64,000 nucleotides of DNA from an uncultured Chthonomonadaceae bacterium. GTDB taxonomy: Bacteria > Armatimonadota > Fimbriimonadia > Fimbriimonadales > Fimbriimonadaceae. This document shows, one piece after another, positions 39,864-41,972 of the stretch. The notes under the pieces were generated by a model. It was not told where the DNA came from and ran no database searches. It was given only the letters and a program-made list of their open reading frames with translations. The DNA lies in assembly GCA_946479035.1 (NCBI GenBank), contig CAMLDW010000002.1, positions 62,001 to 126,000 on the forward strand. Reading direction: 5' to 3'. A program made the translations under genes and the position numbers. Numbering within the stretch: position 1 is the first letter of the stretch; each line of letters begins with the position of its first letter.

Positions 39864-41972
39864 ATGGTCAAATACGACACGATCAAGGCGCTGGACGACG
39901 ACTTCCTAATGAAGACGTACCGCCGTCAGCCCGCCCTTTTCGTGCAGGGCTCGGGCTGCACCCTATGGGACAACAAGGGAAGGGAGTACCTCGACTTCTT
40001 GGCCGGTATCGCGACCTGCTCGCTCGGCCACTGCCATCCGGCTGTCGTCAGCGCGCTCACGCGTCAGGCGCAGCAGCTCACCCACACCTCCAACTTCCTT
40101 CTCACCGCGCCGCAGGCGAGGCTGGCGGAGAAGCTCTGCCGCCTGGCAGGGATGGACCGCGCCTTCTTCACCCACTGCGGCGCCACGGCGAACGAGACCG
40201 CGCTCAAGATCGCCAAGAAGCACGGCCTCGCCAAGCGCCCGGACGGCGACTACGAGATCGTCGCGCTGCACAGGAGCTTCCACGGCCGAACCCTCGGCGC
40301 GATCTCAGCGACGGGCCAAAGGAAGTTCCAGCGGCCTTTCGAGCCGCTGGTGCCTGGCTTCGTATTCGTCGACGCGAACGACCTCACCCAACTCAATGGC
40401 GCGGTCTCGCACAAGACCGCAGCGATCCTCTTGGAACCGATCCAAGGCGAGAGCGGCATCAACGAGCTCTCGACCGATTACTTGCGCGAGGCGCGCCGCC
40501 TGGCCACCGAGAACGGCGCGCTTCTGGTCCTCGACGAGGTCCAAACGGGGATCGGGCGCACGGGCTCGTGGTTCAACTACCAGCAGCACGGCGTCGTGCC
40601 GGACGTCGTCACGCTCGCAAAGGGCCTCGGCGGCGGCGTGCCGATCGGTGCCTGTCTAGCGCGCGGCGCTGCCGCCGAGGTACTAGAAAGCGGCGACCAC
40701 GGTTCGACGCTTGGCGGGAACCCGCTCGCGTGCTCGGTCGCGCTCGCTGTGCTCGATACGATCGAGCACCTGCACGTTCTCGAGAACGTCGAGCGGGTCG
40801 GCGGGTACCTGCGCGCCGCGCTCCTCTCGCTCGGCTCGCCCGTCGCCTCTGTGCGCGGCAAGGGCCTGATGATCGGTGCGGTACTCGAGAAGCCGATCGC
40901 GAAGGACGTGTTCGAAAAGTGCTTTGAGAAGGGCCTCATCATCAACGCACCGGACGATAGCGTGCTGCGCTTCGTCCCGCCGCTCATCGTCACCGAACAG
41001 CAGGTCGACAGGGCCATCGGGGTCCTCGCGGAAGTCCTTGGGGTCGACCACAAGGCGCCGGCCATGGCCCTTGTCACGGAGCGGCCAAGGCCGATCCACG
41101 ATCTACTCGCCATCGACGACCTCACGCGCGCGCAGAGCGAGGCGATCCTCGCGTTAGCCTCCGAGATGAAGGTCCAGCGGCGCGAGGCGCCCAGGACGAT
41201 CGTGCCCGTCGAGGGCAGGTCCGTCGCCCTCGTCTTCGAAAAGCCCTCCCTCCGCACGCGCGTCGCGTTCGAGGCCGCCATTCGCGAGTTGGGCGGCGAC
41301 GCCGTGTTCCTGGGCAAGAGCGAGATCGGCATGGGCTCCCGCGAATCGATCCGCGACGTCTCGTGTAACCTCAGCCGCTGGTGCAGCGCGATCGTCGCGC
41401 GGCTCTATTGGCACAAGGACATCGAACAGATGGCGCAGGACGCGACCGTCCCTGTCATCAACGCGCTCACCGAGATGGAGCACCCGTGCCAGGCTTTTGC
41501 AGACATCATGACCGTCCAGGAGAAGTTCGGCGGCGACAAAGTGAAGGTCACTTACGTCGGCGACGGCAACAACGTCGCGAGGTCCCTGGCCAAGCTCGCG
41601 GCCCAGCTCGGCTTCCCGTTCACGATCTGCGGACCGGAGAACTTCCGGCTGGAAGACATCGAGGGCGTGCGGCAGACCACGAGCCTCGAGGACGGGCTCG
41701 CCGGCGCGAAGGTCGTCTACACCGACGTCTGGATCAGCATGGGCGACGAGCACGAGCAGGAGCACCGACTCAAGGTGTTCGAGCCGTACCAGGTGAACGC
41801 AAAGGTTATGGCGATGGCGGACAAGGACGCTGTGTTCATGCACTGCCTGCCCGCGCGCCGGGGTTACGAGGTCACGGACGAAGTGATCGACTCCGCGCAG
41901 AGCGTCGTTTACGACCAGGCCGAGAACCGCCTCCACGTCCAGAAAGCGATCCTGAGCAAGGTTCTTGGCTGA
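39864..41972 (+). CDS. argD-argF: ArgD-ArgF fusion: acetylornithine aminotransferase + ornithine carbamoyltransferase
   Basis: 702 aa in one uninterrupted frame. Residues 1-392 are a class III PLP aminotransferase of the ArgD type: CGATANETALK, FHGRTLGA, LDEVQTGIGRTG and the PLP-lysine motif LAKGLGGG (about 252). After a linker, residues about 408-702 are a carbamoyltransferase: carbamoyl-phosphate motif SLRTR (about 462; STRTR in most), HPCQ (about 539), the ornithine loop DVWISMG (about 621) and HCLP (about 658). The SMG loop points to ornithine rather than N-acetylornithine as substrate. The two reactions are not consecutive in the standard pathway, since deacetylation lies between. No frameshift or stop is seen at the junction. 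Confidence 0.93.
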   Translation: MVKYDTIKALDDDFLMKTYRRQPALFVQGSGCTLWDNKGREYLDFLAGIATCSLGHCHPAVVSALTRQAQQLTHTSNFLLTAPQARLAEKLCRLAGMDRAFFTHCGATANETALKIAKKHGLAKRPDGDYEIVALHRSFHGRTLGAISATGQRKFQRPFEPLVPGFVFVDANDLTQLNGAVSHKTAAILLEPIQGESGINELSTDYLREARRLATENGALLVLDEVQTGIGRTGSWFNYQQHGVVPDVVTLAKGLGGGVPIGACLARGAAAEVLESGDHGSTLGGNPLACSVALAVLDTIEHLHVLENVERVGGYLRAALLSLGSPVASVRGKGLMIGAVLEKPIAKDVFEKCFEKGLIINAPDDSVLRFVPPLIVTEQQVDRAIGVLAEVLGVDHKAPAMALVTERPRPIHDLLAIDDLTRAQSEAILALASEMKVQRREAPRTIVPVEGRSVALVFEKPSLRTRVAFEAAIRELGGDAVFLGKSEIGMGSRESIRDVSCNLSRWCSAIVARLYWHKDIEQMAQDATVPVINALTEMEHPCQAFADIMTVQEKFGGDKVKVTYVGDGNNVARSLAKLAAQLGFPFTICGPENFRLEDIEGVRQTTSLEDGLAGAKVVYTDVWISMGDEHEQEHRLKVFEPYQVNAKVMAMADKDAVFMHCLPARRGYEVTDEVIDSAQSVVYDQAENRLHVQKAILSKVLG

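What the first reader, a model, noticed from the sequence alone, without database searches (positions are those of the whole stretch)
39864..41972. Single-chain fusion of acetylornithine aminotransferase and ornithine carbamoyltransferase
One open frame contains a full ArgD with its PLP-lysine motif and a full carbamoyltransferase with SLRTR, HPCQ, SMG loop and HCLP. The standard pathway has a deacetylation step between the two reactions, so simple channelling would not work unless a third enzyme joins or the ArgD half acts on ornithine. I do not recall this fusion as a described architecture.
Basis: partly seen in the sequence, partly recalled or inferred. Interest (0 to 1): 0.75.

Follow-up and report, generated by a model that had tools for sequence, protein, structure and literature searches.

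The report
Fused ArgD–ArgF arginine-pathway enzyme
In one group of environmental bacteria, two enzymes that make arginine are predicted to be built as a single protein although a third enzyme should act between them, which makes it a natural test of why enzymes become fused.

Summary
The fusion is real. Window 39864-41972 (+) is one 702-aa frame: a complete acetylornithine transaminase (ArgD, residues 12-393), a ~19-aa Ala/Pro/Val-rich linker and a complete ornithine carbamoyltransferase (OTC, 413-701), each over its curated NCBIfam cut-off. It is not an assembly error: all 120 listed database hits (query included) share the domains, and 31 of 291 Armatimonadota genomes searched carry it (one with an in-frame stop). 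In those 31 it is the only OTC over cut-off. ArgJ, the enzyme for the step between, is found in 30 of 31. Twenty of 77 hand-picked relatives have N-acetylornithine carbamoyltransferase instead, and ArgJ in none. So the OTC half most likely uses ornithine, and direct ArgD-to-OTC channelling is not expected. Six related genomes have argD and argF side by side with one stop between, which suggests origin by stop loss. Two other lineages appear to have fused them separately, one close relative has shed the ArgD half, and another genome has ArgD alone in the same slot. Best reading: a bifunctional enzyme of the ArgJ-type arginine pathway, its halves joined by operon history and kept for co-expression. 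I found no description in the open-access library searched. No activity has been measured.

The parts
39852..39857 (+). Shine-Dalgarno-like AGAGGA, 6 bases before the ATG
   Evidence: sequence; by eye
39864..41972 (+). ArgD-OTC fusion gene, 702 aa, 76.3 kDa
39897..41042 (+). acetylornithine transaminase (ArgD) half, residues 12-393
   Evidence: NF002874 494.7 bits > cut-off 457
40620..40622 (+). K253, PLP-binding lysine (by motif, recalled)
   Evidence: K in 152 of 152 fimbriimonad-type fusions
41043..41099 (+). interdomain linker, residues 394-412, Ala/Pro/Val-rich, model confidence under 50 at 399-409
41100..41966 (+). ornithine carbamoyltransferase (OTC, ArgF) half, residues 413-701
   Evidence: TIGR00658 333.3 bits > cut-off 280.85; half alone 337.5
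41247..41261 (+). SLRTR, carbamoyl-phosphate motif, residues 462-466
   Evidence: S462, R464, T465, R466 in 152 of 152; role recalled
41481..41492 (+). HPCQ, residues 540-543
   Evidence: H, P, Q in 152 of 152, C in 150 of 152
41736..41744 (+). SMG loop, ornithine-side motif, residues 625-627
   Evidence: 152 of 152; role recalled
41841..41852 (+). HCLP, residues 660-663
   Evidence: 152 of 152

Best explanation
This is a bifunctional arginine-biosynthesis enzyme. The N-terminal half converts N-acetylglutamate semialdehyde (with glutamate) to N-acetylornithine. A separate ArgJ moves the acetyl group from N-acetylornithine to glutamate and releases ornithine. The C-terminal half carbamoylates ornithine to citrulline. 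The protein most likely arose when the stop codon between adjacent argD and argF genes was lost, and the fused gene now lies apart from argC-argJ. The linker works mainly as a tether that fixes a 1:1 ratio and co-expression; N-acetylornithine has to leave the protein and ornithine has to come back. Because ArgD is a dimer and OTC a trimer in solved relatives (recalled), the protein should form at least a hexamer. Shown by computation: frame, domains, conservation, gene co-occurrence, separate origins, loss of one half. Inferred: both activities, substrates, assembly, selection for co-expression and origin by stop loss.
For: Both halves pass curated cut-offs. All 120 listed hits have the three Pfam domains. 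31 of 291 Armatimonadota genomes have it, 30 without an internal stop. Of 34 positions that I chose (motifs recalled, some taken from the invariant columns), 30 are invariant in 152 of 152 fimbriimonad-type fusions; the other four are S76 (151, one gap), A107 (129), V226 (137) and C542 (150). It is the only OTC over cut-off in 31 of 31 fusion genomes. ArgJ in 30 of 31, ArgC over cut-off in 29 of 31, ArgH over cut-off in 30 of 31, AOTC over cut-off in 0 of 31. In six related genomes argD and argF are neighbours with one in-frame stop between (G019, G021, G059, G070, G071, G220); ORF ends lie 0-15 bases apart in the three read (L031, L034, L035; starts not verified). The OTC of G107 (81% identical, the closest among all loci held) nests inside the fusion clade (100/100 in a group of four; a tree with the fusions apart from it is rejected, AU p 0.011) but has no ArgD half, and that genome has no ArgJ match and no ArgC over cut-off.
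Against: No activity has been measured. The window's own genome is not held and no argB, argC or argJ match lies in the window, so its ArgJ is inferred from relatives; G107, the nearest held relative by OTC, has none. ArgJ and ArgC over cut-off were also not found in fusion genome G098. ArgE was not searched for, and argB and argG were identified in single loci only. Genome completeness is not given, so absences are soft. A merely passive tether does not by itself explain why the fusion is kept so steadily after leaving argC-argJ.
Confidence: 0.78

Rival explanations
1. The fusion is a scaffold for a three-enzyme complex: ArgJ docks between the ArgD and OTC halves, so that N-acetylornithine and then ornithine pass without mixing with the cell.
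For: The fused enzymes are those before and after ArgJ. ArgJ is in 30 of 31 fusion genomes and not found in G107, which shed the ArgD half. Linker length is narrow (17-22 in 151 of 152).
Against: The linker sequence is variable and predicted with pLDDT under 50 at 399-409, with no conserved docking motif seen. ArgJ co-occurrence is also expected for any OTC-type pathway. In G025 and G028, which carry a separate fusion, no ArgJ was found.
Confidence: 0.12
2. Direct channelling: the second half is really an N-acetylornithine carbamoyltransferase that takes the product of the first.
For: Chemically this would make fusion sensible, and 20 of the 77 hand-picked relatives have N-acetylornithine carbamoyltransferase over its cut-off.
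Against: The OTC half scores 160.3 bits against the AOTC model (cut-off 288) but 337.5 against OTC (cut-off 280.85). The SMG loop is in 152 of 152. In the 77 genomes AOTC and OTC over cut-off never occur together, and ArgJ is in 0 of the 20 AOTC genomes against 30 of 31 fusion genomes.
Confidence: 0.03
3. The first half works as an ornithine aminotransferase, so that both halves compete for ornithine at a branch point between arginine and proline/glutamate.
For: Class III aminotransferases of this family are often promiscuous (recalled). The window also encodes an arginase over its cut-off (TIGR01229 239.7 > 227.6).
Against: NF002874 acetylornithine transaminase cut-off passed, ornithine transaminase TIGR01885 cut-off missed. 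A separate RocD-type gene over cut-off exists in 9 of 31 fusion genomes. In G107, where the half is gone, ArgJ and ArgC are also missing while a RocD-type gene is present.
Confidence: 0.04
4. Artefact: a missed stop or frameshift joins two genes.
For: Such artefacts seem to occur: 19 of the 185 long homologues held fail my test for a complete ArgD end and OTC start; the eight that I read look like frameshifts.
Against: The window protein passes that test, as do 166 of 185. The junction is aligned through in independent contigs, and GC by codon position is coding-like throughout.
Confidence: 0.01

Closest known systems
Acetylornithine transaminase ArgD (NF002874; Thermotoga maritima 2ord, M. 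tuberculosis 7nn1)
   Same: 2ord is the best match by sequence (residues 14-392) and by Foldseek (49% identity).
   Different: The solved ones are single enzymes; here an OTC follows in the same chain. The model of this half superposes poorly (rmsd 13.2 for 2ord) because residues 25-75 and 149-162 are low-confidence.
Anabolic ornithine carbamoyltransferase ArgF (TIGR00658; Pyrococcus furiosus 1a1s)
   Same: Complete domain with SLRTR, HPCQ, SMG and HCLP; Foldseek to 1a1s rmsd 1.8, target TM 0.89.
   Different: Has an aminotransferase in front of it.
ArgH(A) of Moritella and relatives (PMC1382215, passages)
   Same: Fusion of two non-consecutive arginine-pathway enzymes; its authors suggest selection through shared expression in the operon.
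   Different: Joins the last step to the first; here the steps either side of ArgJ.
NAGS-K of Xanthomonas campestris (PMC1865377, passages)
   Same: Bifunctional arginine-pathway enzyme in bacteria.
   Different: Joins consecutive steps (synthase and kinase).
N-acetylornithine carbamoyltransferase route (X. campestris; PMC1865377 and PMC1382215, passages)
   Same: Found in related Armatimonadota, e.g. argC, an argD-like gene and AOTC in a row in L053.
   Different: The second half of the fusion is OTC, not AOTC.

Membership tests
Acetylornithine transaminase (ArgD) | NCBIfam equivalog NF002874 cut-off 457 bits | tested here: met
   494.7 bits, residues 12-393
Acetylornithine transaminase (ArgD) | PLP lysine and other active-site residues conserved | tested here: met
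   K253, R142, E196, D224, Q227, T282, R369 each 152 of 152; roles recalled
Acetylornithine transaminase (ArgD) | Activity on N-acetylornithine | not testable with these tools
   needs an assay
Ornithine aminotransferase (RocD) | TIGR01885 cut-off 378.4 bits | tested here: not met
   317.1 bits
Ornithine carbamoyltransferase (ArgF) | TIGR00658 cut-off 280.85 bits | tested here: met
   333.3 bits whole protein, 337.5 for residues 400-702
Ornithine carbamoyltransferase (ArgF) | SLRTR, HPCQ, SMG, HCLP motifs | tested here: met
   motif meaning recalled
Ornithine carbamoyltransferase (ArgF) | Trimeric assembly and citrulline formation | not testable with these tools
   needs protein
N-acetylornithine carbamoyltransferase | NF003384 cut-off 288 bits | tested here: not met
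   160.3 bits
Bifunctional arginine-pathway fusion | Two complete arginine-pathway enzymes in one open frame, conserved in a clade | tested here: met
Bifunctional arginine-pathway fusion | Both activities shown on one polypeptide | not tested
   no experiment available

The most novel reading that the evidence does not exclude
The fusion is a natural dimer-times-trimer building block that assembles into a closed symmetric particle with ArgJ held inside or between its halves, so that the two steps flanking ArgJ are spatially coupled: a natural arginine metabolon without a direct tunnel.
Probability: 0.12. Interest if true: 0.7.

Novelty: new variant of a known kind. Interest (0 to 1): 0.42.

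Why it matters
Fusions are often read as evidence for substrate passing between consecutive steps. This one joins the steps before and after ArgJ, seems to have arisen more than once and has been undone at least once, so its history could help separate co-expression from channelling. It also bears on annotation: where sources name these proteins they name one enzyme or the other, so automated pathway calls could miss argD or argF in this group. The relatives examined show several arginine routes side by side: OTC with ArgJ, AOTC without ArgJ, and OTC with a RocD-type ornithine transaminase.

Tried and rejected
Window's own genome: not held. Channelling through AOTC: rejected by model scores and gene co-occurrence. 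Internal restart of the OTC from a Met in the linker: the window has M401, but only 33 of 152 fusions have any Met in the linker and I saw no Shine-Dalgarno-like stretch before M401 by eye; this weakens but does not exclude it. An apparent triple fusion ArgB-ArgD-OTC (P0196) was set aside as a probable frameshift product: its ArgD end is scrambled. A second ArgD-like gene in fusion genomes: in the one examined (G001, L059) it scores best against putrescine aminotransferase and passes none of the cut-offs among the 25 of 50 families shown. Rfam: nothing at the gathering threshold in the window. Structure model: useful for the linker; ArgD residues 25-75 and 149-162 came out under 50; no complex could be modelled. 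That G127's lone ArgD is a second case of half loss: left open, since a tree with the fusions apart from it and G135 is not rejected (AU p 0.10). The 77 genomes used for co-occurrence were picked by hand from the 291 (all 31 fusion genomes; G107; the 8 second-tier genomes; 31 genomes listed among and near them without the fusion; G127, G135, G162, G164, G172, G174), so the shares are not a survey, and the Fisher values ignore kinship. The AU tests were named after the trees were seen.

Full report
THE OBSERVATION. Window 39864-41972 (+) is a single 702-codon frame from ATG to TGA. NCBIfam places acetylornithine transaminase at residues 12-393 (NF002874, 494.7 bits, cut-off 457) and ornithine carbamoyltransferase at 413-701 (TIGR00658, 333.3 bits, cut-off 280.85; NF001986 365.6 bits, cut-off 306, residues 411-701). 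Pfam agrees. The junction is coding-like by GC at the three codon positions, and an AGAGGA lies 6 bases before the start (by eye). An AlphaFold2 model built on 50 fusion sequences has mean pLDDT 82.3 and pTM 0.56, with residues 399-409 of the linker under 50, and also 25-75 and 149-162 of the ArgD half. Foldseek matches known OTCs closely (1a1s, rmsd 1.8) and known ArgDs with high probability but poor superposition (2ord, rmsd 13.2).

NOT AN ARTEFACT. All 120 listed hits (the query included) carry the aminotransferase and both OTC domains; organism names, where a source gives one, are Fimbriimonas, Fimbriimonadaceae or, in one source, Chlorobia, and one soil-metagenome name. A scan of genome contigs gave 20 loci, each matched over at least residues 10-694 at 60-72% identity, with Armatimonadetes, Fimbriimonas, Fimbriimonadales, Chthonomonas or plain 'bacterium' names; one of them, L018, is the contig of G098 with an in-frame stop. 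Over three searches I held 280 proteins. Of the 185 of 450 aa or more, 166 pass my test for a complete ArgD end and OTC start; 19 do not, and the eight of these that I read look like frameshifts over neighbouring genes. Of the 166, 152 are at least 55% identical to the window protein; in these, 30 of 34 positions checked are invariant (the rest: S76 151 with one gap, A107 129, V226 137, C542 150 of 152) and the linker (394-412) is 17-22 long in 151. The lists are capped at 120 per search.

DISTRIBUTION. In 291 Armatimonadota genomes (three candidates scored in nearly every genome), 31 have the fusion at 61-72% identity, 30 without internal stop; G098 has one TAG, in its OTC half. Two more (G025, G028) have an uninterrupted fusion at only 48% identity, and six (G019, G021, G059, G070, G071, G220) have argD and argF side by side with one in-frame stop between them. 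In the three of the six that I read, the ORFs lie 0-15 bases apart, starts not verified. In five of the six, argJ is on the same contig within 4 kb. One stop-codon loss would therefore make the fusion.

ORIGINS AND LOSS. In maximum-likelihood trees the fimbriimonad-type OTCs form one clade (100/99). The P0123/P0228 fusions are rejected as its sisters in one clade (AU p 0.003 for OTC; 3e-13 for ArgD). The G025 type is rejected with it in the ArgD tree (p 0.003, or 0.039 with G127 and G135 allowed in) but not in the OTC tree (p 0.062). So the P0123 type looks independent and the G025 type probably so. Other clean fusions (P0229, P0231, P0233/236/237, P0234, P0235/238, P0269, P0272) mostly have short linkers, several with a Met just before the OTC start, and could be recent stop losses or sequencing errors; I do not count them. 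G107 has an OTC 81% identical to the window's (next best among loci held 72.6%) in the same slot, after a nucleotidyltransferase 63% identical to the window's, with no ArgD half and no ArgD match in 19 kb. It nests with P0001, P0002 and P0005 (100/100), and keeping the fusions apart from it is rejected (p 0.011): the ArgD half was lost. In G127 the same slot (nucleotidyltransferase 58.8% identical) holds an ArgD alone, 56% identical over the half, ending in a stop, while that genome has AOTC over cut-off and no OTC over cut-off. Whether G127 lost the OTC half or never had it is open: the ArgD tree leaves it and G135 unresolved among the fusions, and a fusions-only ArgD clade is not rejected (p 0.10).

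PATHWAY CONTEXT. I chose 77 of the 291 genomes by hand (selection in Tried and rejected). Fusion genomes: ArgJ 30 of 31 (partial in G089, in two pieces in G092), ArgC over cut-off 29 of 31, ArgH 30 of 31, one OTC over cut-off, the fusion, in 31 of 31, AOTC over cut-off 0 of 31. argC and argJ are neighbours in 28 of 31, on another contig than the fusion or at least 3.6 kb from it (3.6 kb in G008 and G009); several contigs are short, so more distant linkage is unknown. AOTC is over cut-off in 20 of 77; of these, OTC over cut-off 0 and ArgJ 0. OTC is over cut-off in 46 of 77 and neither enzyme in 11. Seven of the 46 lack an ArgJ match: G098, G107, G025, G028, G091, G105, G112. The last three have a standalone OTC that is sister to the fimbriimonad clade (99/99). 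One genome, G097, has ArgJ, ArgC and ArgH over cut-off but no fusion and no OTC, against my reading or an incomplete genome. A RocD-type ornithine transaminase is over cut-off in 4 of 4 of G107, G091, G105 and G112, against 9 of 31 fusion genomes (Fisher p 0.014, kinship ignored). In G091 and G112 it lies in one cluster with OTC and argH; in G091 argG is there too. A route from proline through RocD, an OTC, ArgG and ArgH to arginine is known in Staphylococcus aureus (PMC3510247, passages). So the ArgD half may be dropped when ornithine comes from elsewhere. ArgE was not searched for.

MECHANISM. ArgD makes N-acetylornithine, ArgJ frees ornithine, OTC uses it (established pathway knowledge). 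The two fused sites therefore have no common intermediate. The OTC half has OTC scores and motifs and not AOTC ones, and the ArgD half acetylornithine and not ornithine transaminase scores. The simplest account is history plus co-expression: neighbouring genes fused, and the tether keeps a 1:1 ratio although the gene now lies apart from argC-argJ. That dimer and trimer folds in one chain should give a hexamer or larger is from established knowledge of the two families (recalled).

LITERATURE. Nine searches of the open-access library bore on the fusion or on arginine enzymes of this group (one search listed 10 of 44 papers); none listed a description of an ArgD-OTC fusion, judged from the listings plus passages in five papers: PMC4072686, PMC1865377, PMC1382215, PMC4490483, PMC3510247. 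A tenth search used metabolon terms (10 of 20 listed). Subscription journals and preprints are not held, so it may be described there. PMC1382215 gives a precedent for fusing non-consecutive steps (ArgH with ArgA).

VERDICT. Real, conserved, probably evolved more than once, not described in the library searched, and probably ordinary in chemistry. A new combination within the known kind of bifunctional arginine enzymes.

Noticed in passing
window 15269-16237 (+): Arginase (TIGR01229 239.7 bits, cut-off 227.6), so the organism may also make ornithine from arginine.
   Followed up: partly
window 42029-45478 (+): Downstream of the fusion lie a bifunctional rhamnulose-1-phosphate aldolase/dehydrogenase (NF006189, over cut-off) and a rhamnulokinase-like gene (below cut-off): another two-enzyme fusion, of a known kind.
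   Followed up: no
window 38484-39413 (+): Sugar nucleotidyltransferase (RmlA-like, below cut-off) before the fusion; found in 12 of the 72 loci held at E 1e-30 (loci overlap and many are short), among them G107 (L037) and G127 (L040).
   Followed up: partly
L037 9242-10192 (+): G107: lone OTC in the slot of the fusion, ArgD half gone; its genome has a RocD-type gene over cut-off.
   Followed up: yes
L040 4976-8085 (+): G127: lone ArgD after the same nucleotidyltransferase, in a genome with AOTC and no OTC over cut-off: the mirror image of G107, or the state before fusion.
   Followed up: partly
L056 1252-6628, L058 8705-13549: Standalone OTC in one cluster with a RocD-type ornithine transaminase and argH (argG also identified in L056), no ArgJ match in the genome: a possible non-acetylated route to arginine.
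   Followed up: partly
L053 6005-9161 (+): argC, an argD-like gene and N-acetylornithine carbamoyltransferase in a row in G095; 20 of 77 hand-picked genomes have this carbamoyltransferase over cut-off.
   Followed up: yes
L048 (G098): Fusion interrupted by one in-frame TAG in the OTC half; no ArgJ match and no ArgC over cut-off in that genome. Decay, incomplete genome or sequencing error.
   Followed up: no
L029, L030: Separate ArgD-OTC fusion (linker 25-26 in its relatives P0121 and P0122) in two genomes without an ArgJ match or ArgC over cut-off, though ArgH is there; the upstream pathway is unclear.
   Followed up: no
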